DNA from: a virus | DNA: 64,000 nucleotides | Direction: 5' to 3' (one strand) | Virus record (IMG/VR): IMGVR_UViG_3300033183_000145 | Location: 1-64,000 of that record | Part shown: positions 4,237 to 64,000 of the stretch, one piece after another | Layout of the letters: every line of letters starts with the position of its first letter | How positions within the stretch are numbered: the stretch's first letter is position 1 | Notes under the pieces: model-generated | What the model saw: the letters and a program-made list of their open reading frames with translations, nothing else | Database searches by the model: none | Told to the model about the DNA's origin: nothing | Translations under genes and position numbers: made by a program

Positions 4237-5103
4237 TTAGCTATTGTGGTCTAATGTTGTTGGTTCAAAATCAACGTTGAAAGCGTGTACCTCGAAGTCA
4301 TGCTCTTGAGGGAACAAAACAGACACGTCAGCAAACTGACCTTTTGGTTGATCTGAGTTTGTGTCTCTGTACGCTATGAGAACTGCACTTCCTTCTGAGA
4401 GGTTATGCGGTACATCGACGAAGTAACCTCCATTGTAGTAAAGCAGAATTTTTGAGGTGCTAGCTTCCGCTTCTGGGTTGGTTCCTAGGGCCACGCCTGA
4501 TTCCTTTACAAGTCTAGCGTCCCCACCACTAAAGTGAGACCTTGGCCCACTGATCTTTACGTATGCTCCTGACCCTTCTACACCAGGATCAAAGCCGAAG
4601 TATTGAATGAAATCTGCTGATTCCACTAGTCTCTCTACAGTTCCTACTGGCTGAACTCTTGAGTTCGACCTATACTCCTCTGTACCTTTTACCCCTCCGT
4701 ACAATATACCCCCTAAGCTTTTTAGCTTGTTAAGTACAACTCTTTTAGTCCATCCGTTGCCAGCCCCATTGTTTACAATGAATGTGTTAAAGGTGGCTGC
4801 GCCATTAGGGTCTGCGGGCCAAGATAAAAGATCGGGAGACTCAATGGAGAAGGACTTGTAAATCTTGTTTACTGACGGGTTAGCGTTGAAAGAGAAAGAC
4901 ACCCCAGAGCTTACAGGATCGCACCCATAGAAACTGTTGTTGGTTGTAGCGTTTTGATCATGCTTCCATAAAATCTCTGCTGACGAAGTAGATACAGGGG
5001 CGGAAATCATGTGGTCTTTAATCCAGCCAAAGCACGAAGAGGTGTAGCTGTACCTGCTTACCCACTCATTAGAAGCGTTATTAAAAGCTATTGTCTCTCT
5101 CAT
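4237..5103 (-). CDS. Probable tail-associated beta-rich protein
   Basis: A 288-residue protein with many Ser, Asn, Gly and aromatic residues and predicted beta structure throughout. It has no signal peptide and no enzyme motif. Its start overlaps by 4 nt the end of the 1765-residue tail gene, so the two are made together. The sequence resembles the late part of tail nozzle-type proteins in style, but I do not recognise a family. The role is assigned from position only. Confidence 0.4.
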   Translation of the reverse strand: MRETIAFNNASNEWVSRYSYTSSCFGWIKDHMISAPVSTSSAEILWKHDQNATTNNSFYGCDPVSSGVSFSFNANPSVNKIYKSFSIESPDLLSWPADPNGAATFNTFIVNNGAGNGWTKRVVLNKLKSLGGILYGGVKGTEEYRSNSRVQPVGTVERLVESADFIQYFGFDPGVEGSGAYVKISGPRSHFSGGDARLVKESGVALGTNPEAEASTSKILLYYNGGYFVDVPHNLSEGSAVLIAYRDTNSDQPKGQFADVSVLFPQEHDFEVHAFNVDFEPTTLDHNS

Positions 5104-8100
5104 TCTTCAGGAAAGTTAAAGGTAACGGCATCGTTAGCCCCCAGGAAGGTTTGCTGGTCGGCAGCTGGGTCAAACGTATTCCCAAACACGGTCAAGAACC
5201 TTAGCAAATCTTGAGTAGATATAGCCCCATCGTTGATGTTGGCGTTGAGTTCAGGATCATCAATTTGCCCAGGGCCAGCAGCCAAGTCAAATAGCTGTTC
5301 AGCACTAAACCTACTAAGTATTTCGGACAGGTCTATAGTAACGCTATCTGGGTATACGTACTCCACAACCGTCTCGGTCGGCCCTCCGCCGCCGCCGCCA
5401 GTATCTCCAGTGCCCTCAAATGCGTTGTCACCACACGTGCCTTCTTGCGTGTTCTGATTATACACACTGAGGATGTAAGTGTCGTTGTATGGGTCATATC
5501 CGCCCACAACCTTGATCTCACCCATCCCAGCATCCCTATCAGCCTCCGCTTGTTCGAACAGCTTCTTAAAGTAGCTCTTCATGTTGATATCAGAAACTAC
5601 TTGAATGCCGTTCGCAGGGTTGAACTTGTACACCTGCCTGTTGCTCTTGCTCGCGAAGTAAACAGTGTTCCCGATGTTGCACACAGATTCTGGGTTGTCG
5701 TCACACCCGTAGTTGCCAGCATAGTATCTCTCAGTGCCAAGCACCTGTCTTGCAGCCACAAGAGTCTCAGAACCACCTCCGTCAGTAATAAGGTTTCTAT
5801 TTACAGGGATAGAGCTGCATCTGTTTGACTGAATGACGAATATTGAATCGTCATTGTTAATCATGTAGTTGATATCGCCAAACTCAGATGGCAAGTCCTT
5901 GAACTGTGCCTTCGCTGGGTTAAATGATGTCAAAGACATGATCTTAGACATAGGGTTGTCCTTGTCTGAATACGTAATAGAAGCTGACTTTACAGATCGC
6001 TCAACATCTGGGAGAACAATCTTTGGCTTTCCCTTTGCCCATACATCAGAGTTTCTGACTTTGTCGCTAAATGATTGAGCTTCAATGTTGTATGGGAAAA
6101 AGTTTGGGCTAGATGACTCTTCTTCTATAATAGATTCAAAGCTTCCAGACTTAACCTTCTGGAAATTGACTGGAGCTGTCTTCCACCAAACATCTCCGCC
6201 GCTAATTGTCTGAACACCTCCGAAATTGGAGATGTCATATGTTGGCCCAATCTCGTAGTACACGAGGCTTTCTTCGTCGGCGGAAAGTTTAGGCGAGTAT
6301 ATCTCTACGACGCACCTCTTGTTCCAGTTGTGTATGTTCGAGTTTGGGTCGTTTTCTCCATTAGCTACTTGATCGTATGTAAACCCAATGGCGTTCAAGT
6401 TATTTTCAAGAACCAAAAATGACCCAGTCTTAGCTTTGTGGGGTATGTTTCCGTCTTGGTCAACATCGTAAAGAGGATTGTCAGCCCCAGTAGAAAGGGT
6501 TACTTGATCGACGATGTTAAACTCATAATCAGAATCTAAGAATATCCTAGACTCTCCAGATGGGTTTTCGTAATAAGATATTATACGAAGCCTGTCTCCA
6601 TCTCGATATGTGTATATGTCGCTAGATCCATCAAGACCTCTTGCCCCATAAGATTTAGCATAAGAGGCCGTGTCGTGCTGAAGGTAATTAAGGGAGACAT
6701 ATATGTTTCCAGAAGACTCATCAGAATCTTGCGCCCCCACAAAAGCCCCGCCTACCGAGTACTGAACAAACCTAGACATGGTTGTGTTTCCGCTGTAAAC
6801 GAACCTGAATTTTGTAGCACCACTCGGGGGTGTACCAGTAAGAGTTACGATAATATCTGAAACCTTTCCTTCAAAACCGTCTGTCCTGTCGCTAAACCAA
6901 GGAACGTAAACACTTCCTATTGGATTTACATTAGAGCTTCGACCTCTTCCGTCATAAAAAACAACCCCAAAAGCATGGCTTGCTCCAGCTTTAAATGTTT
7001 GACCCCCACCAATTCCTGGGGGTATAACTGACATCAATGCGTTTACCCCAGACGAGTTAGACAGCTGATTCTCATATCCAGTCGAACTACTTTCGTGTGG
7101 AAAGTCACCGAAGTAGAATGAACCGACTCCGTACCAGCAATCGGAGTTGATGTGTGGGAGGTAGTCATAGTTGAATCCAGACTTAAGGTGAATAAACGGC
7201 ATAGATGACGTAGCCTCAAGATTTTGAATGGCAGAAGATGTTGCGCCGTAGTTACCTCTAGCTACGACAACTTCCGCTCCAGAGCTGTCATTCATTATAG
7301 CCGCTGGGCCTTTATAGTTAAACTCATTCGCGGAGTTGCCTTCATTTGAATTAGTTGTGTAAGCAACCATTATATTGTTGCTCATGGCAGGACCATAGAT
7401 GCCAGCCAGTGGTTCTCTTCTTGGGACTACAGTGCTTTCAATGTCTCCGTCATCTAACCCGATAAGAACAGCACTTCCAACCTGACCTATTCCTCTCCCG
7501 TCGTCTTCGGCTCCAGGTCCATTGAGCCCAGGAAGCAAGTAGTTGTCGTAAAACGAGTTGTCGTCAACTCCTGATCCGCCTGGACCTCCTTTGCCGTCCA
7601 TAAGCGAAAAAATAGAAGTGCCATTTATGTTCTCACCCTCAAAAAACTTTACTTCTCTGCCGCTGGTTTCATAGATATTTACGTGTTGGTTTGAGTAAAA
7701 CAAACCGCCTATAATGGTCTTCCATGGAGCTTCTATCCCAGGAAAGCTTTCTGAAGCCCTGAAAACGTTTTCTTCCCGCAGAATCCTCATGCCTTCTACA
7801 GGATGATCAAAAAACCCATAGGGCGTATCAACTTCAGCCCCAAATGTTGGTATGGCATCCTGGGGGTAAGAGTTAAACTCTATGTTGTGAGACATACCCT
7901 TTGCGGCAAAGTCTGGATTGTTCTGAAGACCTCCAAAGTTGTTTCCCTCGTAGGAGAATGGGAAAAAGCTATACTCTCTGAAGTCCGCGTTTCCGAACAA
8001 TACCGACTCGTTTACTGCTGGTATAGAATCGTTGCCAGCAGCATTCCACGGAGCCAAGCAGTACCATCTTGCACCTGGAAGAGGGCGTCTTATGCAGGTC

Positions 8101-10397
8101 AGAACAGCTTCTTCGTCTACTGGAACGGTTATCTCTTTAACATATATGCCAAAACGGGCCCTTGGCTTGTCATTCGACTCAGACACAGTGACGGCTTCTC
8201 CTGGGCTGTACTGATTCTGAGCAAATTCTCTCTCTTCAAGGTATCCCTCATCTAAAAAGACGCCAAACTTGACCGTAGCTTTATTCAGTATAATGAATCC
8301 TTTTACTATGTCTGCTACGAGAGAGTTATCTGCCTCTGGCCCTCGCCCTGCTTCCAAGAGTTGACCGACCGCTACACCATTGTCGACTCCATCTGGAGTA
8401 AATCTTGACCCAACTGTAGATATGAGCTTAGCGAGAGACGAGGTCTCCTTAAAGGAAGAACTGTTCCTCAGCCCAAGGTCCACCTCATACTGAAGCTCCT
8501 CATCGGCAGGATATGAAATGTTGTCCGCAAGGGTGGCCAACTCTGAGCCTTCTGATGCTTCTGCTCCAGAAATAATCAAAGATATAGCTCTTACCACTTG
8601 CTGCTTCGTCAAGTCTGAGGCAGCGACAAAGGAACAGCGAACTGTAAAAGGCTTCCCCTGAACTATAAGAGGGTGTCCAGCACTGGTGCCAAGGCTAACG
8701 CCCTCAACCTCACCTATTCCAGCGCTCTCCGTCTCCATGTCGAAATACTTCCACTTGAATTTATCATCTGCGCCATAGGCTCCGTCCTCAAGGAAGCTTA
8801 CCCCTACTCCCGTAGAGCAGATAGCTGGAACTCTTTTGAAAGCATCAAACTGTTCTCTAATGAAGTCGCCTCCTGACTTTTTCATACTCTGCCAGAACAG
8901 CCCCTTTGGGTGGCCCGTGACGGCGCTATCTCCAAGTCCAGCGTTAACGACAGGATGTACACCAGCTGCCCAGTCATCTATCGTTCCTATGCCATTCTGA
9001 CTAATGCCCTCTAGGGAAAAGTCTTCACCCATTTGTGGGCTTTGGTGGTATGAACGTCTGGAGTTGTATACGTGAAAGTTTTGCTTTGGGCTTACTGTAA
9101 AACTAAACGATATGAAAGACCCCTGCTCCATTGTGTTGTCAAGCTGAGAGGCATCTATCGTAAAGCCCATGTTTTTATTTTGAGCGCCATCCTCTGGGTC
9201 CCAGGGGCCTGGAGATGGGCATGTAGACGGCAAGACGTTAAGTTCATAGCTCTTGAAATCTGAAGGCCTTTCAGAGGGCGAAGGAACCATTGCAGAATCA
9301 ATTTCTACGTTGTCGAACCCGCTTAAATAATTACCGTAAACAAGCCTGTTGTCTATAATTGTCTGAGCCTCAACTCTGTACGGAACATCATCAAACTGTT
9401 TTGTCTGTACGTCAGAAGGAATAGCTGAGTTAACAGAGGTGTTCAGGAACCTATAAGATATAGGAGCGTCTTCATAGTCAAATTCATCAACCATAAACCA
9501 AGACCCAGAGTCGCCCCTTCTCGCTAACAGCTTGACACTGTTTATTTCCGAAGACATGTCATCATTAGGTATGATGAGGTCTATAGCGTTTAGCTGATTT
9601 AGATAAGATACATCACTAGATCCTGTGTACCTCAAGTATCCAGGTGGCACAAATATGTTTGAGTAAGCAGATATTGCGCTTTCAGACCCATCAATGTATA
9701 CGTTTTGATATGCAAACTGAAAGCCTTCAATTCCCAAAAACTCATTTGAGTTAAACGAAGTTTCATTCTCCCACCCTCCAGAGCTTGACTCAGTGTCAGA
9801 GGTTATGGGCGTTTGAGGAGTGTTGGCGCACACAAGAACAAAGTCGTAGTAACCGCTTCCGCTGGAGTCGTGGTCGCCTTCCATGGCTCGGAGTACGTTA
9901 ATCTTCTTTGGTTGAGACTGATTGTCTGTAAAGAAAATAAACGGCACATCCTCGTAAAGCGTCTCGTCTTCTGTTATGTAGTTTCTCTGGATATACGTAA
10001 TGTCGGCCTTTACAAAGGCGTCAATACCGTAAGTGAGAAGAGTTGAAGTGAAGACCTTCTTAATCCCATTCTTTTCAGCGCCTCCAGGAAGGTACCCATC
10101 AGGGTCGTAAGCATAAATACCGTTTGGTCCGTCCTCTTCATAAACGAAGAAATAGATGACGTTGTACTTATCGCACATCACCTTTCCGACCACGGTCTTG
10201 TTCGTTCCAGTAAACGAAGAATACCCTTCATTAAGAGGTGTGTTGGACTTCAGCGGCTTCAGTACGCCAGCATTTCCTCCACCACCTCTAGTGTCCTCCG
10301 ATGTGTTGATGTTGATTGCATCAGACATCTCATCTGGACCGAGCAGTCTTGAATCAGCGGACTTGTTCAGCTTTCTTGGATACCTCTTTTCAATCAT
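5100..10397 (-). CDS. Giant tail protein (nozzle/muzzle-like), dockerin-like C-terminus
   Basis: A 1765-residue beta-rich protein, the largest structural gene apart from the polyvalent protein at the right edge. The first 40 residues carry basic start-of-tail features and the rest is long Ser/Asn/Gly/Asp-rich beta structure. Around residues 1560-1640 a segment includes NPESVCNIGNTVYFASKSN, similar in style to the C-terminal part of podovirus tail-nozzle proteins. A six-Gly run lies near residue 1667. Close to the end (about 1715-1745) is a pattern NDGAISTQDLLRFLTVFGN that looks like one half of a dockerin-type calcium loop-helix. It lies directly after two connector-sized genes, the order expected for connector, ring and nozzle. 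Tail nozzle is an inference. Confidence 0.5.
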   Translation of the reverse strand: MIEKRYPRKLNKSADSRLLGPDEMSDAININTSEDTRGGGGNAGVLKPLKSNTPLNEGYSSFTGTNKTVVGKVMCDKYNVIYFFVYEEDGPNGIYAYDPDGYLPGGAEKNGIKKVFTSTLLTYGIDAFVKADITYIQRNYITEDETLYEDVPFIFFTDNQSQPKKINVLRAMEGDHDSSGSGYYDFVLVCANTPQTPITSDTESSSGGWENETSFNSNEFLGIEGFQFAYQNVYIDGSESAISAYSNIFVPPGYLRYTGSSDVSYLNQLNAIDLIIPNDDMSSEINSVKLLARRGDSGSWFMVDEFDYEDAPISYRFLNTSVNSAIPSDVQTKQFDDVPYRVEAQTIIDNRLVYGNYLSGFDNVEIDSAMVPSPSERPSDFKSYELNVLPSTCPSPGPWDPEDGAQNKNMGFTIDASQLDNTMEQGSFISFSFTVSPKQNFHVYNSRRSYHQSPQMGEDFSLEGISQNGIGTIDDWAAGVHPVVNAGLGDSAVTGHPKGLFWQSMKKSGGDFIREQFDAFKRVPAICSTGVGVSFLEDGAYGADDKFKWKYFDMETESAGIGEVEGVSLGTSAGHPLIVQGKPFTVRCSFVAASDLTKQQVVRAISLIISGAEASEGSELATLADNISYPADEELQYEVDLGLRNSSSFKETSSLAKLISTVGSRFTPDGVDNGVAVGQLLEAGRGPEADNSLVADIVKGFIILNKATVKFGVFLDEGYLEEREFAQNQYSPGEAVTVSESNDKPRARFGIYVKEITVPVDEEAVLTCIRRPLPGARWYCLAPWNAAGNDSIPAVNESVLFGNADFREYSFFPFSYEGNNFGGLQNNPDFAAKGMSHNIEFNSYPQDAIPTFGAEVDTPYGFFDHPVEGMRILREENVFRASESFPGIEAPWKTIIGGLFYSNQHVNIYETSGREVKFFEGENINGTSIFSLMDGKGGPGGSGVDDNSFYDNYLLPGLNGPGAEDDGRGIGQVGSAVLIGLDDGDIESTVVPRREPLAGIYGPAMSNNIMVAYTTNSNEGNSANEFNYKGPAAIMNDSSGAEVVVARGNYGATSSAIQNLEATSSMPFIHLKSGFNYDYLPHINSDCWYGVGSFYFGDFPHESSSTGYENQLSNSSGVNALMSVIPPGIGGGQTFKAGASHAFGVVFYDGRGRSSNVNPIGSVYVPWFSDRTDGFEGKVSDIIVTLTGTPPSGATKFRFVYSGNTTMSRFVQYSVGGAFVGAQDSDESSGNIYVSLNYLQHDTASYAKSYGARGLDGSSDIYTYRDGDRLRIISYYENPSGESRIFLDSDYEFNIVDQVTLSTGADNPLYDVDQDGNIPHKAKTGSFLVLENNLNAIGFTYDQVANGENDPNSNIHNWNKRCVVEIYSPKLSADEESLVYYEIGPTYDISNFGGVQTISGGDVWWKTAPVNFQKVKSGSFESIIEEESSSPNFFPYNIEAQSFSDKVRNSDVWAKGKPKIVLPDVERSVKSASITYSDKDNPMSKIMSLTSFNPAKAQFKDLPSEFGDINYMINNDDSIFVIQSNRCSSIPVNRNLITDGGGSETLVAARQVLGTERYYAGNYGCDDNPESVCNIGNTVYFASKSNRQVYKFNPANGIQVVSDINMKSYFKKLFEQAEADRDAGMGEIKVVGGYDPYNDTYILSVYNQNTQEGTCGDNAFEGTGDTGGGGGGPTETVVEYVYPDSVTIDLSEILSRFSAEQLFDLAAGPGQIDDPELNANINDGAISTQDLLRFLTVFGNTFDPAADQQTFLGANDAVTFNFPEE

Positions 10398-53032: not shown

Positions 53033-53118
53033 AAAGGATTGACCAATGCTGGATTTCCCAAATGTACTATCTTAGTAACGTTACACGGGTTAGTTGACTG
53101 TGGAACTTCGCAATCTGT

Positions 53119-53157
53119 GGAGGGGGGCTTACATAAGTTCCCCTCTTCTCTTTTTCG
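53119..53157 (+). terminator. Intrinsic terminator after the reductase
   Basis: GAGGGG (53120-53125) pairs with CCCCTC (53140-53145), inner CTTA/TAAG adds support, and TTCTCTTTTT follows. It separates the reductase from the T9SS cargo unit. Confidence 0.75.
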
Positions 53158-53165
53158 TACCTTTG
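53158..53165 (+). promoter_or_regulatory. TACCTTTG promoter element for the T9SS cargo unit
   Basis: TACCTTTG matches TAnnTTTG, 7 nt before the ATG at 53173, just downstream of the terminator. It gives the two surface-protein genes their own transcription unit. Confidence 0.6.
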
Positions 53166-53172
53166 GGGGTGA

Positions 53173-55071
53173 ATGAAAACCTTTATCACTACCCTCCTAC
53201 TGGCAATTACCTTTTCGAGCATAGCTCAAGAGTGTAGCCTCTTAGTGCCTGATAACGTGAAAGTTATGGGCATGAGTCGAACTGATGTTAACCTCGCAGA
53301 GGTTGATACAGTGGTACTACCCATTGTGTTCCATATCGTGCACACTGGGGCTGGCGAAGAAAACAACATCTCCGACGAACAAATCATGTCGCAGGTCGAT
53401 GTTTTGAATGATGAGTTCGCTGACAGTAAGATTCAGTTCTGTATGGCCGTGCGAGATCCTGAAGGCAACCCAACCAACGGCATCACTCGCACCGATTACA
53501 GCTGGAACAAGGAGTATGTAGCCAATGGTATCAGCAATGGCTCAGGTGGCGGAGCTGACCAGACACAAGTAAAGTCTGACGCGGGGTGTTGGAACCCTGA
53601 AGAGTACATCAACTTTTACGTGGTTAACGAGATCAATGGGAATGACGGGGGATGGGGTATTCAGGGATTTGCTTACCTCGGACCTACTGGTGATTGCAGA
53701 GACGGTGTGGTGTGTCTGTACAACGTAACGGGCAACATAGGTACGCTGAAGCCAGGTCGAGAGCTTGGGTTTACGGGGGTCCACGAGATGGGTCATCACC
53801 TTTCTCTTTGGCACACATTCTCTAACTCGAACGACTGCGTAGAGACGAACTGCGAGACTCAGGGTGATCAGGTATGCGACACTCCGCCAACCACCCCGAA
53901 TGATATTGGGTGCGTTGCCGCAGATTGCCCCGACGCTTTGCTTGAGAACTTTATGGACTACACTCCCGAGACTTGTAGGGAGTCGTTTACTGTTGGTCAA
54001 GCTGAGCGTATGCACGAATGCTTGCAGACTGTGAGGTCTGGCCTTCTCGACAACCTGTCCTGTGTGCCTATAGTAGACTACGACGCGACACCGCTAACAG
54101 CCTACTATCAGCAGACGTGGTGCACCCCAACTCAGGATATTTGGATCGACGTAGTAAACCAAGGAACGCTCCCTTTGGACGTCATCGAGGTGCAGCTCTA
54201 CGTCAATGGAAACCAATACGCAGAATACTTATACGACGTTCCTACTGGCACCCACGAAGTGTTGTTTGAGAACGTATATGTTGATGGAGCCCAGATGTTC
54301 GAGGTCCAAGTAGTTAGCTCCCTTGATCAATATCAAGACAACGATTACTCTTGGTGGCCTATCGAGACTGTCTCTGGGGAGCTTATGAATATCACCGTAG
54401 GGACGGACAACTGGGCCAACGAAGTCGACTGGGTGCTCTACGATGAGTTTGGGGAAATTGTAACTGGGGATGGGGACTATCCTTTTGGGGTGAATACATA
54501 CGAGTATGAGGTATGCGTCTACGAGGGTTGCTATACCTTCGAGGCCACCGACACTAACGGAGATGGGATGTGTTCTTTGGACTTCGGTAACGATGGTATT
54601 TGCGACATTGGAGGGGATGGGATTACGGCCAGTGTTAATGGGAGTGTCATCTTCGCTACGGAGCAAACGGAGTACTCTCTCTTCGACACAACCTTCTGCT
54701 TCTCTATTGGGGATTGCCCTCTTGACTTTGACGGTAACGGAACCGTAGGCAATGGTGACGTGCTTGATATGATACTTGAGTACGGGTGTCAGTCTGGATG
54801 CCAGACGGACCCAAACAACGATGGTATCGTAAACGTAATGGACCTACTCTACATGCTCACCAACTTGGGCGATTGCCCGCTTGAGCAAGACCTCTCTATA
54901 GGTATGCTTAAGGACGTAACCCTTGCCGCAGCATCGGCAGGAGGTGTTGGAAAAAATCCTCAGATCTACGACATGACGGGGCGGAGGGTTCGAGGCCCTG
55001 TGGAGTCCCTGGCCACGGGAGTCTACATTCTGAAGTGGGAAAGTGTAACCAAGAAAGTATTTGTACAATGA
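53173..55071 (+). CDS. Secreted M43-type metalloprotease with T9SS type A sorting domain
   Basis: A 632-residue exported protease. Residues 1-19 are a Sec signal (MKTFITTLLLAITFSSIAQ). The catalytic domain has the extended zinc motif HEMGHHLSLWH (about 203-213) and the Met-turn ENFMDYT (about 257), the signature of M43 (pappalysin-like) peptidases. A beta-rich region follows. Around residues 517-565 two Asp/Asn-rich loop-helices (DFDGNGTVGNGDVLD and DPNNDGIVNVMDLLYM) look like dockerin-type calcium sites. The last 50 residues (IYDMTGRRV...KKVFVQ) are a T9SS type A sorting domain. The product should reach the host surface through the host T9SS. No inhibitory propeptide was seen. Confidence 0.85.
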   Translation: MKTFITTLLLAITFSSIAQECSLLVPDNVKVMGMSRTDVNLAEVDTVVLPIVFHIVHTGAGEENNISDEQIMSQVDVLNDEFADSKIQFCMAVRDPEGNPTNGITRTDYSWNKEYVANGISNGSGGGADQTQVKSDAGCWNPEEYINFYVVNEINGNDGGWGIQGFAYLGPTGDCRDGVVCLYNVTGNIGTLKPGRELGFTGVHEMGHHLSLWHTFSNSNDCVETNCETQGDQVCDTPPTTPNDIGCVAADCPDALLENFMDYTPETCRESFTVGQAERMHECLQTVRSGLLDNLSCVPIVDYDATPLTAYYQQTWCTPTQDIWIDVVNQGTLPLDVIEVQLYVNGNQYAEYLYDVPTGTHEVLFENVYVDGAQMFEVQVVSSLDQYQDNDYSWWPIETVSGELMNITVGTDNWANEVDWVLYDEFGEIVTGDGDYPFGVNTYEYEVCVYEGCYTFEATDTNGDGMCSLDFGNDGICDIGGDGITASVNGSVIFATEQTEYSLFDTTFCFSIGDCPLDFDGNGTVGNGDVLDMILEYGCQSGCQTDPNNDGIVNVMDLLYMLTNLGDCPLEQDLSIGMLKDVTLAAASAGGVGKNPQIYDMTGRRVRGPVESLATGVYILKWESVTKKVFVQ

Positions 55072-56087
55072 GAGCGGTACTATTGTGGTTTCTGATTCCT
55101 GTTCTGTCCTATGGGCAGGGAATATGCGATATGGAGATCATAGGGTTTAACCCCATCTCCACGGATATAACAATCGCTATTAACGGAGGGTACTGCACGC
55201 CTGAGGCTGGGGATTCTATCGGTGAGTTCTTATTGTCTCTGGCATTTAATCCAGCGCTAGACGATAACGGAGACTGGGGGTGTATATACCCTAACGGATG
55301 GGCATACCTCATCTTCCCACTCAACTTCCCTGGTTTCGACATAGGCGAAGGAGCGGATCAGATACTCCAGACAGGGGATACTGTTTCTTTTACCCTCGAT
55401 GAGATACCAACGTTTGGAAGCGGAACAGCGGCATGCTGGATAGACATCATGCAAAGCGGAGCATACTATGAAGAGTGCCTTGTTCTTACTGTGTGGCAAA
55501 TCAACGATAGTCACCCACTTGACGGAAGCAACACTGGACTAGGTGGATTCCCATACCCTGATGCCAACATCTTCAATTCGTGGATTATGTGGAGCCTTAA
55601 TGGAGCGTGCGATCCACCACCTCCCCCTATCGTATACGGGTGTACAGATATGTTTGCGTACAACTACAACTTCGCTGCTTCGCAGGATGACGGAACGTGC
55701 GTATATCAGGGGTGTCAAGACCCTCTGGCACTTAACTATTGCGAGGAGTGTGAAGTAGAAGGGCCATGTATCTATGAGCCTCCAGGAGGTGAGGATTGCA
55801 GCGATCCACTGATCTTTATAGCAAACACCTTTAGTCCCAACAACGATGGTCTTAACGACTACTGGAAGGTCGTTACAAGGGCAGAGTGCTGGCTCACATG
55901 GGAGCTCAGGATCTACAATAGATGGGGCACGCTCGTATGGATGAGCTACGACCCAGACGCTAAATGGATAGGGGAAAGGCTTGATGCCTTTGTCCCTGAC
56001 GGTGTATACACCTGGGCTCTCAAGGCCAAAACTTATGAATCAACGAAGGTTGTGGACATGGCTGGCCACGTCACCATATTCAGGTAG
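55068..56087 (+). CDS. Exported surface protein with T9SS type B (gliding-type) C-terminal domain
   Basis: A 339-residue protein started at the ATG at 55068, which overlaps the protease stop as ATGA. Residues 1-17 are a signal peptide (MRAVLLWFLIPVLSYGQ). The middle is Cys/Gly/Asn-rich with two GCTD/GCQDPLA-NYN repeats typical of marine flavobacterial surface proteins. The C-terminal region from NTFSPNNDGLND to VTIFR is a type B (CHU_C-like) T9SS sorting domain. Likely exported with the protease. Its stop abuts the convergent gene's stop. Confidence 0.8.
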   Translation: MRAVLLWFLIPVLSYGQGICDMEIIGFNPISTDITIAINGGYCTPEAGDSIGEFLLSLAFNPALDDNGDWGCIYPNGWAYLIFPLNFPGFDIGEGADQILQTGDTVSFTLDEIPTFGSGTAACWIDIMQSGAYYEECLVLTVWQINDSHPLDGSNTGLGGFPYPDANIFNSWIMWSLNGACDPPPPPIVYGCTDMFAYNYNFAASQDDGTCVYQGCQDPLALNYCEECEVEGPCIYEPPGGEDCSDPLIFIANTFSPNNDGLNDYWKVVTRAECWLTWELRIYNRWGTLVWMSYDPDAKWIGERLDAFVPDGVYTWALKAKTYESTKVVDMAGHVTIFR

Positions 56088-56456
56088 TCAGGGCTGCTCT
56101 ATCGTGTTAGCCTGCTGAACTTCGTAGACCTTATTTTGGATCTCGTTAAAAGGAGTTCCGAGTCTAAAGCTTATGTCTGCAACGTATTGCCACGCAGGTC
56201 TATCTCCATTGTATATCACAACAACGGGGACTGCTGTAACGCTAGTCTTAATTGACTCTGGTTGGTCCTCAAGCCAGCCGAATTTATAGTTGCAACCACG
56301 CAGTTCCTCAAGGTCTCTTCGGGTGTGGTTCTCGTTCCATTCAGCATTGATCTGAACCACCGTAACCTGCTCTTCTGGGAGAGAGTTAAGCTTTACTGCA
56401 GCTCCAGTTCCAAGTGCGCCAGCTGCAAGCGCCAAAATAGCAATAGTCTTGTTCAT
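56088..56456 (-). CDS. Membrane-anchored thioredoxin-fold-like protein without CXXC
   Basis: A 122-residue protein. Residues 1-25 form a hydrophobic Ala/Leu anchor or signal; the rest follows a thioredoxin-like order: VTVVQINAEWNEN strand-helix, then a conserved cis-Pro-like AVPVVVIYNG and a final helix. The usual CXXC is missing; one Cys remains near residue 52. It may sense or bind a partner rather than exchange disulfides. First of four minus-strand genes in the lysis-type cassette, with an overlap to the next. Confidence 0.45.
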   Translation of the reverse strand: MNKTIAILALAAGALGTGAAVKLNSLPEEQVTVVQINAEWNENHTRRDLEELRGCNYKFGWLEDQPESIKTSVTAVPVVVIYNGDRPAWQYVADISFRLGTPFNEIQNKVYEVQQANTIEQP

Positions 56457-56734
56457 CAGTCCTGAGTACTTAATTCATAGAGCCTTTGTTCAATCAAATC
56501 CAGCTTCTCTCCATTCTCCTCCACTTGCTCCTGAGTGTTCATGATGGTTTCTCTTATGAGTTGGTCCTTAAGATCGTATTCTGTTCTAGACACCTCTGGC
56601 TTAGGAAGCTTTTTAGCTAACTCAATGTCAGCCTGCAACGCAAACCACATCCCGCATAGCGAAATTACAAAAGAAATAATAACCACTATGGTTTTGATGT
56701 CGAGAGTGAACTCGGTCTTGTCGTCAAGCTTCAT
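56456..56734 (-). CDS. Single-pass membrane coiled-coil protein (spanin/holin-partner-like)
   Basis: A 92-residue protein with one transmembrane helix (about 14-34: IKTIVVIISFVISLCGMWFA) and then a long acidic coiled coil (IRETIMNTQEQVEENGEKLD). Such topology suits a phage membrane-fusion or lysis-accessory protein. It lies between the holin-like gene and the thioredoxin-like gene. Role is inferred from topology. Confidence 0.5.
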   Translation of the reverse strand: MKLDDKTEFTLDIKTIVVIISFVISLCGMWFALQADIELAKKLPKPEVSRTEYDLKDQLIRETIMNTQEQVEENGEKLDLIEQRLYELSTQD

Positions 56735-57171
56735 TTTTTGGACTTTTCGAGGGTTCTTCCAGCAAAGTATGCGCCAAAAGATGTTAGCATAAGAATCTCC
56801 AGCAAAGATACATAACTTTCCTTCACGTTAAAGGGCAGGTAATCAAGCGAGTCCAGCACCATGGTCACCATGAACATGGCCATGAGAGCGATCAAAGTCA
56901 CTGGTCTGATGTACTTTGCGAGCTTGACGTCGCTCCCCATATCAGCCTTCCATCTTTCAGTTACATTGTTCTGATAGGCTATCTCTGCGTCAAGGACTGC
57001 CTTGGCTTCTGCAGGGTCTACACTATCATCATTATCGAGAAGGTTCTTCACTATCCCGAGAGCTCCCTGATCTGGCAAAAGATCACCCACTGTATCCAAT
57101 ACACTAGGCGCTTTATCTTTTAGCCACTTGCCAAGGTTGGTGTCTTTGATCTTATTTTCTTGCTTGCTCAT
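56731..57171 (-). CDS. Holin-like protein (3TM family style)
   Basis: A 146-residue protein. Residues 1-80 are soluble (WLKDKAPSVLDTVGDLLPDQ segment), then two clear transmembrane segments (YIRPVTLIALMAMFMVTMVL and SLLEILMLTSFGAYFAG) close to the C-terminus. The pattern resembles phage holins of the three-transmembrane group that puncture the inner membrane so that endolysin can escape. Starts inside the end of the polyvalent gene by 20 nt. Confidence 0.6.
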   Translation of the reverse strand: MSKQENKIKDTNLGKWLKDKAPSVLDTVGDLLPDQGALGIVKNLLDNDDSVDPAEAKAVLDAEIAYQNNVTERWKADMGSDVKLAKYIRPVTLIALMAMFMVTMVLDSLDYLPFNVKESYVSLLEILMLTSFGAYFAGRTLEKSKK

Positions 57172-60100
57172 ATCTCTTGTTGAACTCCATGATTATCTTT
57201 CTTTCCTTCTCTCTGAGCTCCTGTATTCTCGCTATGCGTTGAGCATACGGGAGCTTGTTTGCTTCTCTTTTAGCAGCTCTTAGCTGACGGAGCATCTTGT
57301 CTACCTTATTCAGGTAGTTATCCATTCCTCTAGTAATGCCTCTGTGTCTTTCTGGATCGTATTCTCCAGATGCCTTTATTTCCTTTACGTAAGACTTGAG
57401 CTCTTGCTTGTTCTCGTTAAACAACTCAAAGTCATAGTACTTAGATGGCTCTCCGTAAAGTATACGCGCAAGAGGTATCTCATTTGCCTCAATCTTTATG
57501 TCTTCTCCAGAAGAGAACTTAGAGACTATCTTCTTTGGAACTGCAACAGATCTGTTTACAAACTGACCAGCTGATCCGATATAGTACTCGAACATGTACC
57601 AAAGCTTATCTGGATTAAAATCAAGTCCTCCAGATTTGTACTCACTTCCACCAGTGGCTTCATTCATCCACTTGAAGAAGTCCTTCACGGCCTCAGGGGA
57701 TCTGAAAGAAAGCTCTGACTCTGGGCGCTGAACTCCGAACGGGAGATTCTCTCCTGTTACTGGAGCTCCAAAGTAAGTTTCATTCACCATGACCTCAACC
57801 CAAGGCTTGAGTACCGTTGGAACTGCTCCCTTACCGACGCTCGTCATAAGGTCTTTAGACTGACCAAACGATACTGGAGAGAACGAGGCCATAAATGAGT
57901 TAAACAAGAACATCATCGCCTCATCAGCCTCCTTGCCTCCGTGAGCAGACTCTACCATAGCTGTACCCATGTTTGCAAACACGTTAAATCCATACGGCAT
58001 AGGAATCTTAAAGTAGTCCTTTCCGTTGGGGCGCATAATGATAAGGTTTCTTTCCTTCACGTAATCTGGAATCTTGTCCCAGTATGGAGTTCCGTCTTCA
58101 TCGTCGTCAGACATAGCGTAGCCAAGCTGCGCGAGCATAGCGCTAAACGTCGTCAATCCAGCAGCCATCCATTGTGCTGCGTTGACTCTTTCAACTCCCT
58201 TTCTTCTTGTGCCGTCTACCCTTGTTTCGGGTTTAAGCGTAAGCAACGACCTTCCAAGTCTTGCTGTACCCTGTATAGATGCGTTGAAGAACAAGTAAAC
58301 AGCATTTAGGGCTGGACCCCATTCGCCCTGCTTATTGAAGTTAACAGTGATGTTCTTTGCAAGCTGAGCTGCCTTTTCTCTGCTGACTCCATTCTCCCTT
58401 GCAGCTATGTATGCAGCAAGCCTGATGCTATTCTCAAAGGCGTCGTTAACGCCCTCGATTGTTTCTGCAAAGTTCTTAGCCTTGCCGAGTATCTCTTGAG
58501 TTCTTGTCGTATCACTAGCAGCATTTTCAAGGTCGCTAGCTATTTGGTCTAGAGATCTTGCGTATGCCCAACCTGTCTTACCTCCGTCTTCTTTAAATTC
58601 TTGGAAATACTTCTCAATAGCTGGGTCTCCGCCTCTCTGAACAGAGTTCTTGACGAGCGTTTTAAGCGTTTGAGGAACAAGCTTCATCATCCTCTTGATG
58701 GTGCCCTTGCTGTTCAGCATTCCACCCTCTATATCGGCCTCTGCTGCTGCGTTAAATATAGCAGACTGAATATCTCTAGAGAAGTTGGATATCATAAACT
58801 CTGGGTTCAGAGTCGTGAATGACCTTCTCAGCCATTGTGCTGGAACTCTGAGCGCTCTTATGAATGCGTTGGTCTGTGGGAGGTTCATTCCCTTCAGGCT
58901 TTCAGCATAGCTTGGGTCCTTAAAGAATATGAACTTCTGCTCTCCATTGATTCTTACTGCGACAACTCTCGCGTCGTTGGGGTTCTGAACCTGACTCGCA
59001 TCAAGTACTCTCCAAACCTTAGGATTAGGAGTATCCTTAATCAGGTTGTATAGAGTCGTGAGGGCTTCGTTGGTTCTGGCCTTTATGTGGATTCCTGCAT
59101 TTTGAGCAACAATCTGAGCGAGAATGTTTTCAGCTTGACTCTTTCTACCTTGTGCTCTCTTGGTCGTAGATCCAAATACGTTCATGCCAGCCCCTCCAGT
59201 GGGATATGGAGATCCAAGATCTTCGTCTACAGCTACTCCAGCCAAAGGAACATAGTTGCTAAACATAGACTCAAAGGCATCAACAGTATCCTTGGTCTCA
59301 AGACCATACTTAACCATTGTGTCCCTTGTGTCTTGCTGTATCTCTCTGACCTTAGCAACGATTGGGTCCAGCTGAGCCTTGTTTGCGGAGTTGATGATTG
59401 CATCAGCCTCAGCGTTGGACATGCCACTACCATCCTTTATCGCTCCATTCGTTCTTTGCTCAATGATGGCATTGCGTTCCTTGGCGTGCAGGGCGTACAG
59501 GTACTGAGACAATGCAGTAACATCTATGCCAGAGTCCTTCATCATCTTGGTGATCTCCTCGACCTTCTTGTCGAGTTTAGCGAGATCTTCTGCGGCCTTG
59601 CCGTACATGAGCTCTTCAGCCATTTTGAAGTCCTTGTCTTTCGACAGCGGACCAAACTGCTTCTCTATAGACTGTTGCAGATTAAATATGTCTACATACT
59701 TGTCCTGAAGCCTTCTTATCCAAAGGTTTTTCCACCTCTGGAATCCAGTGTGGTTAGGGGCGTCCCAGGCTTTGTGCTTTCTCTTGCCAGCCGATCGCCT
59801 AATCGTGTCTTCTCCATCTGAGTGTGTAACCGTCTCCTCTCCTACGACTTGACCAGTAACACCCTTGGCCGCATAGAATGATTCCTGAGCCTCAAGGTAA
59901 TCTTCGTATCTGTCGAATTTGTTTGCTTCGTCTGAAGCTTCAAATTCTTCCTTGGACATGAACTTAGCGAAGAATCTTTTTTCACCTTTGTCGTACCCCT
60001 TCGCCTCTGGGTATGCGTCTGCTATACCCATCTGCTCTCTCAGGAAGCCCATCTGCTCCACTCTGGAGTCGTACTCTTCCTGAGTTTCACCGTCAAGCTT

Positions 60101-63100
60101 TGTTATAGCAAGCCCGTAAGAGAATGCGCCGTTACCCTTGAGTCCAACTACATCAAGACCAGTTACAAGTCGCTTCTTGTTATCAAGAGACATTCTCTTA
60201 AGCTGATTCTTAGATATGTCTCCTTCAATCTTGTATGGGACCTTTATCGCAGCCACTATCGTTCCACCTTCTACCTTCCCAAATTGCTTTTCTATGTAGT
60301 TATCTTTAAGGAATTGGTCTGCATTTTGGTTGAGGTTCTTTGCTATTATTCTTCTGGCAAAGTTGTTTCTATTCTCAAAGTTCTGGTCAAAGTTCTTTGG
60401 GTTCGTGTCCATGAGTATATCGACCAGCGCTTGCGCCTCTTGCATCGTCTCCACCTCGAAAGCCTCGGCCCTTTGGTAAGCGTTGTATATTCTTCTGGCG
60501 TCAGCTGGTTCCAGCGCATCCATAAGGTCCTTTATGTTTCTTCTCTTGCCCTTGCCCTTGGCGTCAATCATTTCGTTCAGAGCGTCTCTGACCTGCTCGA
60601 AGTTTTGATCTGTGACTTGTATTCTTCTGCCCTTTTCAAATCCGAGAGCCCTTCTCACCACGTCTTGGAATATAGCTGGGTTTCCAGCCATAGAAGCCAA
60701 ATCAAGGACAGAGAAAGTAAACAATACATATCCCTTTGGGTTCTTGCTCTCTGCATCAAGTATTGCCCCTCTTCTGAACTTTCCAGAAACTATGTTAGCC
60801 ATAGCCTTGTTTCTGTGGCTTGAGGCAATTATCTCCCTAATTCCGTCATTATCAATTCTTTGCGTAAGCTGCATCACGATGCCAGTGCCGATCTGTTCCC
60901 CAGATCTGTCGTAACCAAAGTTGATTCCGCGAGCGCCAGCAAATCCCTTGAGGCTATCAATAATTTTCGCGCCTCTGTTCTGAGCCTTTTTCAAGAGCCC
61001 GTCTTCTGCCTGAACAGTACGAGCCTTCTTTCTCTTACCTGCGCTGTATCTAATGCTTCCGTCGTTAGTAGCGTCCCCATCCTTGGCCATGTGGTGCGGC
61101 GTAAGCCCAGACATACCATAGATTTCAGAGGGCTTCATCTGCTCTATCTCACCTGGGGTGAGGCCAGACTCTTTAAGTGCCTCGAAGTTTTTCTTGGCGA
61201 CCTCAAGAAACTCTCTTTGGTGCTCAACAGGCTTAAGGCCGAAATCAATCATGGCTCTACCAACAGCCATTGATCTCTCGTCTTCGCTCATATTTTGCAT
61301 AGCGTCGACGTCCATAACTCCTGGCATGAAGAACTCCGCTCTTGCTCCAGGTACACCAGCCCGAACCATCTCTGCTCTTACGAACCCAGAAAAATCAATG
61401 ATTTCGCTGCGAATCTTTCTTTTCTCCTCTGCAGCTAACGCTCTTTTCTTTTGAGCCCTATCCGCTGCAGCAAGTCTTCCATGAAGCGCACCCTCCATGC
61501 GTATTACGTTCCCGTCTCTATCCGTCTTTGGCTTTGGTGGCTTGATCGTGTACCTCTTGCCATCCTTGATAAAGTACATCTGGGTAATCCTTGCTGGTCT
61601 ACGACCGTTGGCAGTCATATGGTTAAACCAGTTTCTGAAATGGAAGTAGTCGTTAACCTTAATCTTCTTTTGAACTGTCCTTTCAAATGTTGGCTTGGCC
61701 TCGCCTATCTCGACGTATGCGTCCTCCGTGTAAAACACCTCGGTATCCTTGAGATAATTGAACTCGGTTTTTCTTTTCCCGTACGCAAAACGAACCTCAC
61801 CTAGGTCACCCATCTCGTCCTCAAACCTCTGCTGCTCTGTCTCTTCATCTCCGAGCATTTCTGTTGCCATTTGCTCAAGACGTGCTTCGTACTCAGCTTG
61901 AGACTCAGTCTCTCTCTTTTGCATGGACGGCCCCTCTGTTGTGACGCCCTGCTCTCCTCTAGTTGCTCTAGCGAAGTTCTGTGCGAACTTGATGAGCTCT
62001 TCTCTGTTCTTAATCTGCGGGTCTCTTTGATCGCCTGGCTGACGACCAAGGAATCGGTCAAGAGCGTCGTTGATAGCGTTCTTAAGTCTGACAAAAAATC
62101 TTTCGTCGTTAGCCTCGAAGAGGGATTGATTCTCTGCATATGAAAGCAGAACCTCAACAATAGACTCCTCCTCTACAGCCGCCTGACCTTGCTCCTGATA
62201 TACAGGGTTGTTTTTTATTTCTTCAAGTATGTTTCTGACGGCTTCATTCTTTTCAGCCATCTCGACAAGAACGCCGTAGATCTGCTTTCTTGCAAAAGCA
62301 TCATTCCCTATGACGTGTCTCAGAGCAGCGTGTGCAAACTCTTCCTGTACCTCTCTTGCGTTGACGTCTGGTGGGAAGTGAATAACCTTTCCGCCGTGGT
62401 CAACGTGACCAAAACCGCCCTTCAGTCCTCCACTAGCCTCGTATGAGGCTCTTGTCTTATGGGCTCTAACCTTATAGCCAGCTTTGCCCAAGGCGTCACC
62501 GTATGCAGAGTTGAGGCGGTTAGCCTGAATAGCCGCAGCCACAGACATGCGTCCAGACTCACCGACTTGAGTTTCATCTGTAATGTCAATCAGATCGCCC
62601 TTGCCAAGTTCGAGGTCAGCAAAGTCACTATCATCAGTTGTCGGTTCGGCCCTCTGTTCAGCCTTAGGCGCGTCGGCCTTTGCCTCAGACTTCTCCCCAG
62701 AAACCTTATCTCTAAAGTCTTGTTCTTCAACAATCTTCCCTGCAACCTTGGCAGACCTCTCATCAATAGGCCTTCCCTCTTGGGTCTCGTCAAATAGCGA
62801 CAGCTGCTCGGCCTCTTGTGCTTGGCCTTCTGGTGCTGGCTCTGACGACTGCTCTGAGAGCTTTATGTTGTTTCTCTCAAGCATCTTAATAGACTCAGAC
62901 TTCATCTCAGTCTCGTTTCCTTCGGCGTCAGTAGTAGCTACTGGGGCATCGTTCTCCGCCACGTCAGGACCCTCTGAAGCACCCTCAATAGCTACCTTGG
63001 CTCTGTAGAGGTTTTCGTACCTCTTCTTAAGCTGCTCTTTCTCTTCCTTCGTTGTGTTGGGGTCCATGAGCTTGGCCTCCGTGTAAGCCATGTCTCTGTG

Positions 63101-64000
63101 GATCTTCAGAAGTCTTCTTCTTTGTCCTTCGCTCATGTTGTCGAAGGCCTTCATTGAGCTATCGTCGATAGCCATAAGCTCTGCAGAGATTTGAACCTGC
63201 ATAGCTTCAAGTCTCTTTCTGTTGTCTGGGTCTCTTTCTATTGAGAGATCATTTTCGATCTCTTCCATCTGCTTTGCGAGCTGACGTCTTCTCTTTATGA
63301 AGCTGTTGTGGGCTTGGAATGATGCGTAACCAGACATCGCGCTTCCTGGGGCTGCACCAATGAGTCCAGCTATACCAGCATCAAGCATGTTGTACCAGTT
63401 CAGCTCACCTGGCTCCCTACCCATAAGCATGTCATCCAAGATTGGCAGGGCCTGTTGAATCAACTCCACACCAAATTCTTCAGCAAACTCACCGAAAGCA
63501 TTTTTTGATCCATAGGCCATAGACTTTGCAAGGGACCTTCTCTTCGTCATCTGAGCAAGTCTTTCCGCAGACTCTTTCTTGAGTTTATCTATGGCCTGCC
63601 TGTACACTCTAGTCTTTCCGCCAGCAATAGCCCTATCAAAACCAGAAAAAATTCTTCCTAGATAAACCTCGGCTGCGCCGACCAGTGTAGACATTGTAGC
63701 CTTTTCTGCCCAGGATTTTGATGGATCCGTGACTTGCTCGCTATTCCAGAAGTTTCCGTATCCACTAACACCAAGAGTTCCAATCATTCTAGCGCTTTCA
63801 GCTCTTGTCGTAGCTTTTACAAGCTGATCTGCTCTTCGAGCCGCAGAAGCAGCACCCTTGGTGAGCAGTCCTTCTCCAGCTGGAATTCCTTTCTGTATAG
63901 CTTTAGCCCTCCGAAGCCTGTCGGCTGGACCACCAATAATCTTACCCCACCCCCGCATTTGCCCAATGAAGCCAGACGTATAAAAAGACATGCTTTCAAA
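57152..64000 (-). CDS. Giant polyvalent (injected) protein, N-terminus possibly outside the window
   Basis: At least 2279 residues from the ATG at 63991; the frame is still open to base 64000, so it may start further right. It has long helical and charged regions. A segment QEEFAHAALRHVI near residue 550 has the shape of a zincin site in which the first zinc-binding His of HEXXH is replaced by Glu. Around residue 1710 ISNFSRDIQSAIFNAAAEAD and following helices match the style of large-polyvalent-protein (LPD) domains, and the C-terminal third looks like a conserved domain of injected phage proteins. Three nearly identical linkers with the pattern R-x-S/A-x-GKRK lie near residues 735, 980 and 1400. 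It is probably ejected with the DNA; multi-domain, possibly cleaved. Confidence 0.6.
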   Translation of the reverse strand, partial: FESMSFYTSGFIGQMRGWGKIIGGPADRLRRAKAIQKGIPAGEGLLTKGAASAARRADQLVKATTRAESARMIGTLGVSGYGNFWNSEQVTDPSKSWAEKATMSTLVGAAEVYLGRIFSGFDRAIAGGKTRVYRQAIDKLKKESAERLAQMTKRRSLAKSMAYGSKNAFGEFAEEFGVELIQQALPILDDMLMGREPGELNWYNMLDAGIAGLIGAAPGSAMSGYASFQAHNSFIKRRRQLAKQMEEIENDLSIERDPDNRKRLEAMQVQISAELMAIDDSSMKAFDNMSEGQRRRLLKIHRDMAYTEAKLMDPNTTKEEKEQLKKRYENLYRAKVAIEGASEGPDVAENDAPVATTDAEGNETEMKSESIKMLERNNIKLSEQSSEPAPEGQAQEAEQLSLFDETQEGRPIDERSAKVAGKIVEEQDFRDKVSGEKSEAKADAPKAEQRAEPTTDDSDFADLELGKGDLIDITDETQVGESGRMSVAAAIQANRLNSAYGDALGKAGYKVRAHKTRASYEASGGLKGGFGHVDHGGKVIHFPPDVNAREVQEEFAHAALRHVIGNDAFARKQIYGVLVEMAEKNEAVRNILEEIKNNPVYQEQGQAAVEEESIVEVLLSYAENQSLFEANDERFFVRLKNAINDALDRFLGRQPGDQRDPQIKNREELIKFAQNFARATRGEQGVTTEGPSMQKRETESQAEYEARLEQMATEMLGDEETEQQRFEDEMGDLGEVRFAYGKRKTEFNYLKDTEVFYTEDAYVEIGEAKPTFERTVQKKIKVNDYFHFRNWFNHMTANGRRPARITQMYFIKDGKRYTIKPPKPKTDRDGNVIRMEGALHGRLAAADRAQKKRALAAEEKRKIRSEIIDFSGFVRAEMVRAGVPGARAEFFMPGVMDVDAMQNMSEDERSMAVGRAMIDFGLKPVEHQREFLEVAKKNFEALKESGLTPGEIEQMKPSEIYGMSGLTPHHMAKDGDATNDGSIRYSAGKRKKARTVQAEDGLLKKAQNRGAKIIDSLKGFAGARGINFGYDRSGEQIGTGIVMQLTQRIDNDGIREIIASSHRNKAMANIVSGKFRRGAILDAESKNPKGYVLFTFSVLDLASMAGNPAIFQDVVRRALGFEKGRRIQVTDQNFEQVRDALNEMIDAKGKGKRRNIKDLMDALEPADARRIYNAYQRAEAFEVETMQEAQALVDILMDTNPKNFDQNFENRNNFARRIIAKNLNQNADQFLKDNYIEKQFGKVEGGTIVAAIKVPYKIEGDISKNQLKRMSLDNKKRLVTGLDVVGLKGNGAFSYGLAITKLDGETQEEYDSRVEQMGFLREQMGIADAYPEAKGYDKGEKRFFAKFMSKEEFEASDEANKFDRYEDYLEAQESFYAAKGVTGQVVGEETVTHSDGEDTIRRSAGKRKHKAWDAPNHTGFQRWKNLWIRRLQDKYVDIFNLQQSIEKQFGPLSKDKDFKMAEELMYGKAAEDLAKLDKKVEEITKMMKDSGIDVTALSQYLYALHAKERNAIIEQRTNGAIKDGSGMSNAEADAIINSANKAQLDPIVAKVREIQQDTRDTMVKYGLETKDTVDAFESMFSNYVPLAGVAVDEDLGSPYPTGGAGMNVFGSTTKRAQGRKSQAENILAQIVAQNAGIHIKARTNEALTTLYNLIKDTPNPKVWRVLDASQVQNPNDARVVAVRINGEQKFIFFKDPSYAESLKGMNLPQTNAFIRALRVPAQWLRRSFTTLNPEFMISNFSRDIQSAIFNAAAEADIEGGMLNSKGTIKRMMKLVPQTLKTLVKNSVQRGGDPAIEKYFQEFKEDGGKTGWAYARSLDQIASDLENAASDTTRTQEILGKAKNFAETIEGVNDAFENSIRLAAYIAARENGVSREKAAQLAKNITVNFNKQGEWGPALNAVYLFFNASIQGTARLGRSLLTLKPETRVDGTRRKGVERVNAAQWMAAGLTTFSAMLAQLGYAMSDDDEDGTPYWDKIPDYVKERNLIIMRPNGKDYFKIPMPYGFNVFANMGTAMVESAHGGKEADEAMMFLFNSFMASFSPVSFGQSKDLMTSVGKGAVPTVLKPWVEVMVNETYFGAPVTGENLPFGVQRPESELSFRSPEAVKDFFKWMNEATGGSEYKSGGLDFNPDKLWYMFEYYIGSAGQFVNRSVAVPKKIVSKFSSGEDIKIEANEIPLARILYGEPSKYYDFELFNENKQELKSYVKEIKASGEYDPERHRGITRGMDNYLNKVDKMLRQLRAAKREANKLPYAQRIARIQELREKERKIIMEFNKRYEQARK

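What the first reader, a model, noticed from the sequence alone, without database searches (positions are those of the whole stretch)
53119..56087. Phage-encoded T9SS cargo pair: M43 protease plus type-B surface protein
A terminator, promoter and two coupled genes form a separate unit, as morons do. Both products carry T9SS sorting domains of different types and signal peptides, so the phage uses the host's T9SS to place a protease and a partner on or outside the cell. The target could be host surface proteins, competitors, extracellular matrix, or block superinfection. Phage-encoded T9SS cargo of this kind is unusual, and a same-operon type A and type B pair is notable.
Basis: partly seen in the sequence, partly recalled or inferred. 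Interest (0 to 1): 0.85.

Follow-up and report, generated by a model that had tools for sequence, protein, structure and literature searches.

The report
Phage-borne surface protease and partner gene pair
A virus of marine Bacteroidota bacteria carries two translationally coupled genes, a secreted zinc protease and a surface protein, that appear built for export by the host's type IX secretion system, and the same pair recurs in many otherwise unrelated phages, nearly always beside the genes that burst the cell.

Summary
Window 53173-55071 encodes an M43 (pappalysin) protease with an intact active site. 55068-56087 encodes a protein with a T9SS type B sorting domain above the curated cutoff. 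The two overlap as ATGA and follow a strong terminator. The protease's type A tail is divergent: curated models miss it, but a profile comparison supports it. About 40 viral contigs carry the pair, podovirus-like and siphovirus-like, and the overlap is kept in 60 of 62 (redundant) loci checked. The pair's M43 genes form one virus-only clade. That clade mixes podo- and sipho-like phages, and both genes are under strong purifying selection, so the module moves between lytic phages. In most contexts it sits beside endolysin or holin genes. The partner's N-terminal domain is an orphan with no Pfam or PDB match. It was not found in bacterial genomes, whereas the same patterns found 54 viral loci. 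Most likely the pair remodels the infected cell's surface late in infection (receptor removal or masking, virion release), with aid to lysis as the main rival; function is inferred. Phage-encoded T9SS cargo has a published precedent (Cryophage, 2020), so this is a new variant of a known kind.

The parts
53081..53117 (+). conserved 3' element GTTACACGGGTTAGTTGACTGTGGAACTTCGCAATCTG of the upstream operon
   Evidence: present in pair-bearing and pair-less relatives
53119..53146 (+). rho-independent terminator-like hairpin that ends the early/RNR operon
   Evidence: 12-pair stem with T run; compensatory pairs in relatives
53158..53165 (+). Bacteroidota -7-like box TACCTTTG; would give a (nearly) leaderless mRNA
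   Evidence: sequence; position kept in L002, L007, L028, L034, L037, L263; inference
53173..55071 (+). M43 (pappalysin/ulilysin-like) metalloprotease, 632 aa: signal peptide ~1-18, catalytic domain ~45-292 (HEMGHHLSLWH 204-214, Met-turn NFMDY 259-263), CARDB-like beta domains ~300-500, dockerin-like Ca repeats ~515-568, divergent T9SS type A tail ~590-632
   Evidence: Pfam/PDB, fold search ulilysin/mirolysin and CARDB, active-site residues kept in relatives
55068..56087 (+). partner, 339 aa: signal peptide ~1-16, virus-only orphan domain ~17-181, PPPPP linker with two YGCTD..NYN repeats ~183-236, CHU_C / T9SS type B sorting domain ~250-339
   Evidence: orphan domain
55068..55071 (+). ATGA stop/start overlap (translational coupling)
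   Evidence: kept as ATGA/GTGA in 60 of 62 pair loci (redundant set)
56088..56456 (-). convergent small exported protein, thioredoxin-like without CxxC (neighbour, not part of the pair)
   Evidence: sequence; no Pfam hit
56731..57171 (-). holin (neighbour that defines the site)
   Evidence: phrog_3427 holin 7e-20

Best explanation
A mobile two-gene phage module for remodelling the infected cell's surface. Shown by sequence: an active-site-intact M43 protease and a partner with a virus-only domain are arranged as a coupled unit, kept by purifying selection and exchanged between unrelated tailed phages. Inferred: both go out by Sec and then the host T9SS (type B signal for the partner, divergent type A for the protease). 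On the surface the protease trims host surface proteins, probably T9SS-exported adhesins that serve as phage receptors, while the partner binds or masks the surface. The benefit would be exclusion of rival phages and/or keeping progeny from sticking to spent cells and debris, as neuraminidase does for influenza virus.
For: Domains and intact catalytic residues. Pair in about 40 viral contigs with the overlap kept. dN/dS about 0.02-0.1 for both genes. One virus-only M43 clade (support 99/92) that mixes podo- and sipho-like phages, so horizontal exchange. Unrelated M43 clades and other T9SS-tagged proteins occupy the same holin-side site in relatives, so surface export is repeatedly selected there. 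Nearly all named portal relatives are phages of Flavobacteriia. T9SS-dependent gliding proteins are proposed or known phage receptors in Flavobacterium and Cellulophaga (PMC7345892, PMC13288928). Late-operon position beside lysis genes in siphovirus-like phages.
Against: No substrate is known and no experiment exists. The type A tail is weak by curated models, and one relative, L263, lacks the tail altogether yet keeps the overlap and partner. Protease and partner recombine apart (window vs L006: M43 84%, partner 69%; window vs L009: about 65% and 82%), which argues against a tightly matched complex. Most phages with the same holin site lack the pair (6 of 64 had it by the first screen). The neighbourhood fits a lysis role almost as well.
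Confidence: 0.42

Rival explanations
1. Lysis accessory: the exported protease weakens the outer envelope (surface layer, outer-membrane proteins, capsule-anchoring proteins) so that holin/endolysin lysis completes and particles disperse.
For: The pair or partner lies next to an amidase, an M15 endolysin or a holin in most contexts. In L305, L308, L312 and L307 a different M43 gene overlaps the holin stop and is co-directional with it.
Against: In L038 and L158 the pair lies by the terminase, about 3.5 kb from the endolysin. In the window the pair is convergent with the holin operon and has its own promoter-like box. Lysis-side sites are also common hotspots for unrelated cargo genes.
Confidence: 0.25
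2. Nutritional or host-fitness gene: the infected cell secretes a protease that digests extracellular protein, feeding the infected cell or its neighbours, with the partner as an anchor.
For: M43 relatives are abundant secreted enzymes of marine Flavobacteriales. Phage-borne T9SS enzymes such as an endoglucanase and a GH39 are reported (PMC7468147).
Against: The phages look lytic: no integrase was seen among the proteins scanned and no prophage copy in 84,980 genomes. Late, lysis-linked placement leaves little time for feeding. The partner domain was found only in viruses.
Confidence: 0.15
3. Virion-associated tail proteins: the protease digests host surface layers during entry.
For: In siphovirus-like contigs the pair follows the tail genes directly.
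Against: Sec-like signal peptides and a curated T9SS type B domain would be pointless on a virion protein; in podovirus-like phages the pair is on the opposite strand from the structural genes.
Confidence: 0.06
4. Host contamination, assembly join or chance ORFs.
For: All sequences are metagenomic.
Against: About 40 viral contigs, purifying selection, conserved active site, and no cellular genome found with the partner domain.
Confidence: 0.01

Closest known systems
Cryophage T9SS cargo genes (cryoconite phage, Nat Commun 2020, PMC7468147)
   Same: phage genome carrying variable genes with T9SS sorting domains, proposed for superinfection exclusion or competition
   Different: type A only and other enzymes (endoglucanase, GH39, PA14 protein); no M43, no coupled type A/type B pair, no spread across phage types reported
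Mirolysin (Tannerella forsythia) and ulilysin, M43 pappalysins
   Same: catalytic domain about 30% identical; HExxHxxxxxH and Met-turn; mirolysin is, from general knowledge, a T9SS cargo
   Different: phage-encoded; extra CARDB-like, dockerin-like and divergent tail domains; coupled to a partner
Cellular M43 multidomain proteins of marine Flavobacteriales (e.g. L161, L162)
   Same: up to 43% identity over catalytic and next domains; similar tail type
   Different: separate clade; mostly larger proteins (about 600-1500 aa); no partner domain found in the genomes searched
T9SS-tagged proteins in gut BACON/crAss-like phages (PMC6949934)
   Same: T9SS sorting domain in phage proteins near structural genes
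   Different: BACON repeat proteins, no protease pair
Phage morons and superinfection-exclusion lipoproteins (e.g. T5 Llp; general knowledge)
   Same: accessory genes with their own signals that alter the host surface
   Different: not a prophage gene here; proteolytic; export by T9SS

Membership tests
Peptidase M43 (pappalysin) | family profile match and metzincin zinc motif with Met-turn | tested here: met
   PF05572 64 bits vs cutoff 23; HExGHxLxLxH and N[FY]MDY in every aligned pair member; the Gly of the metzincin consensus is S/T/N, as N in ulilysin
Peptidase M43 (pappalysin) | proteolytic activity | not testable with these tools
   needs expression and assay
T9SS type B cargo (partner) | TIGR04131/CHU_C C-terminal domain above curated cutoff, and signal peptide | tested here: met
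   40 vs 35 bits; CHU_C 60 vs 27 bits; signal peptide by eye only
T9SS type A cargo (M43) | TIGR04183/PF18962 C-terminal domain | tested here: inconclusive
   no member passes the curated cutoff (5 of 22 weak), but profile-profile score 33 vs shuffled maximum 17.7
T9SS cargo (both) | export lost in a T9SS mutant | not testable with these tools
   experiment
Moron | independent unit with own promoter and terminator, absent from close relatives | tested here: met
   podovirus context only, and the terminator is shared with pair-less relatives; in siphovirus-like phages it is part of the late operon
Moron | expressed from a prophage / lysogenic benefit | tested here: inconclusive
   no prophage copy found; no integrase seen among the window proteins scanned
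Lysis protein | member of the lysis cassette | tested here: inconclusive
   adjacent to endolysin/holin in most contexts, not in L038/L158

The most novel reading that the evidence does not exclude
A dedicated, virus-only two-component surface-remodelling system: a T9SS-exported protease plus a surface protein with a new viral domain, delivered by the host's own secretion machine in the last phase of infection and traded between podovirus-like and siphovirus-like phages. In it the partner is the core (it also occurs without the protease) and displays or targets the protease, to destroy or mask phage receptors.
Probability: 0.33. Interest if true: 0.82.

Novelty: new variant of a known kind. 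Interest (0 to 1): 0.63.

Why it matters
Phages are thought of as acting on the host surface through tail proteins, lipoproteins or lysis enzymes. A widespread lytic-phage module that hijacks the type IX secretion system to place a protease on the infected cell would be a new way of changing the host surface. It would connect marine virus infection to surface proteolysis, and it makes 'what do phages export through T9SS?' testable in culturable flavobacteria. The partner defines an unnamed viral protein domain.

Tried and rejected
Contamination or assembly join: rejected (recurrence). Type A tail by curated HMMs: failed; a single-sequence search with a cellular-tail HMM did not beat decoys; the profile-profile test did. 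Cohesin-like partner domain docking on the protease's dockerin-like repeats: attractive because L263 lacks the tail, but neither PDB nor Pfam supports a cohesin, and the full-length fold model is low confidence (pLDDT 63; Foldseek hits are generic FnIII/Ig/cohesin), so left as speculation. PorP/SprF identity of the 347 aa protein in L313: no hit. Partner in host genomes: the best hits were to the linker repeat region; the orphan domain itself gave none. Named phage records (INPHARED): no pair, only distant single-domain matches. Rfam: nothing at the upstream element. The part of the M43 fold model around residues 212-300 is poor (pLDDT about 30), so no structural claim about the active site rests on it.

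Full report
Setting. The window lies in a 65,027-base virus record. It encodes a terminase, a portal (phrog_6547), a holin, a primase/helicase, a B12-dependent ribonucleotide reductase and an M15-type endolysin homologue. Its portal resembles, at about 30% identity, those of cultured phages of Cellulophaga, Maribacter and Flavobacterium, so a flavobacterial host is likely. No integrase was seen among the window proteins scanned.

The pair. Gene 1 (53173-55071) is an M43 protease. Pfam scores it 64 bits against a cutoff of 23, and its best solved relatives are ulilysin and mirolysin. The zinc motif and Met-turn are kept in every pair member aligned. C21, just after the signal peptide, is invariant and could be a cysteine switch keeping the enzyme latent (inference). 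After the catalytic domain come CARDB-like beta domains, dockerin-like calcium repeats and a C-terminal tail ending GVYILKW...KKVFVQ. Gene 2 (55068-56087) has a signal peptide, a domain of about 165 residues, a PPPPP linker with two YGCTD...NYN repeats, and a T9SS type B domain above both curated cutoffs.

Is the tail of the protease a type A signal? Curated models do not accept it. A profile of 18 phage tails against tails of 33 cellular M43 proteins scores 33.0 (P 1.7e-6). The same profile with columns shuffled reaches at most 17.7 in 200 trials, and reversed it scores 8.8. It is therefore a divergent type A tail at profile level. One relative (L263) lacks the whole tail but keeps the overlap with the partner.

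Recurrence. Searches found the protease in 26 viral loci and the partner in 54; by my count about 40 distinct contigs have both. Some are near-duplicates, and loci recur under several names. Every pair-type protease whose downstream DNA is present has the partner. The stop/start overlap is kept in 60 of 62 loci with the tail directly upstream; that set counts some contigs more than once, and the two exceptions are L138 and L139. dN/dS is about 0.02-0.1 for both genes where synonymous sites are not saturated.

Mobility. The pair lies in several genome contexts: window-like podoviruses between the early operon and a convergent holin; siphovirus-like contigs between tail genes and an amidase or an M15 endolysin; podovirus-like contigs divergent from an amidase; and beside the terminase in L038 and L158. 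In the protease tree all 24 pair members form one clade (99/92), apart from 57 cellular and 8 other phage M43s, but podo- and sipho-type carriers are intermixed: the window groups with L004/L006, and L013 with L034/L038 (its bootstrap had not fully settled). The two genes also recombine apart: window vs L006 is 84% and 69%, window vs L009 about 65% and 82%.

The partner domain. Its N-terminal domain has no Pfam or PDB relative. The same two peptide patterns that found 54 viral loci found none in 84,980 bacterial and archaeal genomes, and a profile found none in 395 genomes of the class of a related host (no positive control inside that call). The pattern search is limited, so 'virus-only' means not found here. 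A subfamily (L141-L157) has the partner without the protease, next to an M15 endolysin, on contigs that are fragments, so the partner can probably act alone. The linker repeat, by contrast, is abundant in marine Flavobacteriales genomes (up to 78 matches per genome, best ones in the linker region).

The site. The terminator and the element before it belong to the upstream operon: they also occur in pair-less L254 and L256. In pair-bearing podoviruses a TAnnTTTG box follows, just upstream of the start codon. Among 64 relatives with enough DNA beyond the holin, 26 have an M43 and/or type B protein match there, and six were scored as the true pair. The others include two unrelated M43 clades, one of which overlaps the holin stop on the same strand, and a type A-tagged protein of about 700 aa with relatives of similar size in sister contigs. 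This site is repeatedly filled with exported proteins.

Mechanism. Shown: gene content, intact active site, overlap, selection, exchange, neighbourhood. Inferred: Sec then T9SS export, surface action, purpose. Receptors of flavobacterial phages are thought to be T9SS-dependent gliding proteins (PMC7345892, PMC13288928). A surface protease made during infection would remove them, blocking rivals and freeing progeny. A lysis-support role fits the neighbourhood almost as well.

Novelty. Phage-encoded T9SS cargo was described as a unique occurrence in Cryophage, with superinfection exclusion proposed (PMC7468147). The coupled M43/type B module, its spread across phage types and the viral partner domain were not found in the papers searched or, as a pair, in 50,697 phage records. 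A structure of an uncharacterised viral protein 61% identical to the partner does exist in the BFVD library (A0A516LFN5), so single members have been deposited without comment.

Noticed in passing
L305:8432-9616, L308:2048-3217, L312:8429-9598, L307:2325-3473: A different M43 protease (about 390 aa, no type A tail) starts inside the holin stop codon on the same strand, as if part of the lysis operon.
   Followed up: partly
L315:8667-10697, L283, L242, L249: A third M43 clade with its own divergent tail, without the partner, occupies the same holin-side site.
   Followed up: partly
L313:8435-11598, L311, L263, L320: After the holin comes a T9SS type A protein (about 700-840 aa) followed by a ~347 aa exported protein of unknown family, possibly an outer-membrane barrel.
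   Followed up: partly
window 53081-53117: Highly conserved element GTTACACGGGTTAGTTGACTGTGGAACTTCGCAATCTG before the early-operon terminator; also in pair-less relatives; no Rfam match.
   Followed up: partly
L263:13209-14942: Natural loss of the whole type A tail of the protease with the stop/start overlap to the partner kept.
   Followed up: partly
window 56088-56734: Between holin and pair: a thioredoxin-like exported protein without CxxC and a small membrane-anchored coiled-coil protein (spanin-like?).
   Followed up: no
L136, L138, L158 partner genes; L140: The YGCTD...NYN linker repeat varies from none (L140) through two to four copies between phages.
   Followed up: no
window 57152-63991 and 5100-10397: Very large proteins (2279 and 1765 aa), probably virion or internal proteins.
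   Followed up: no
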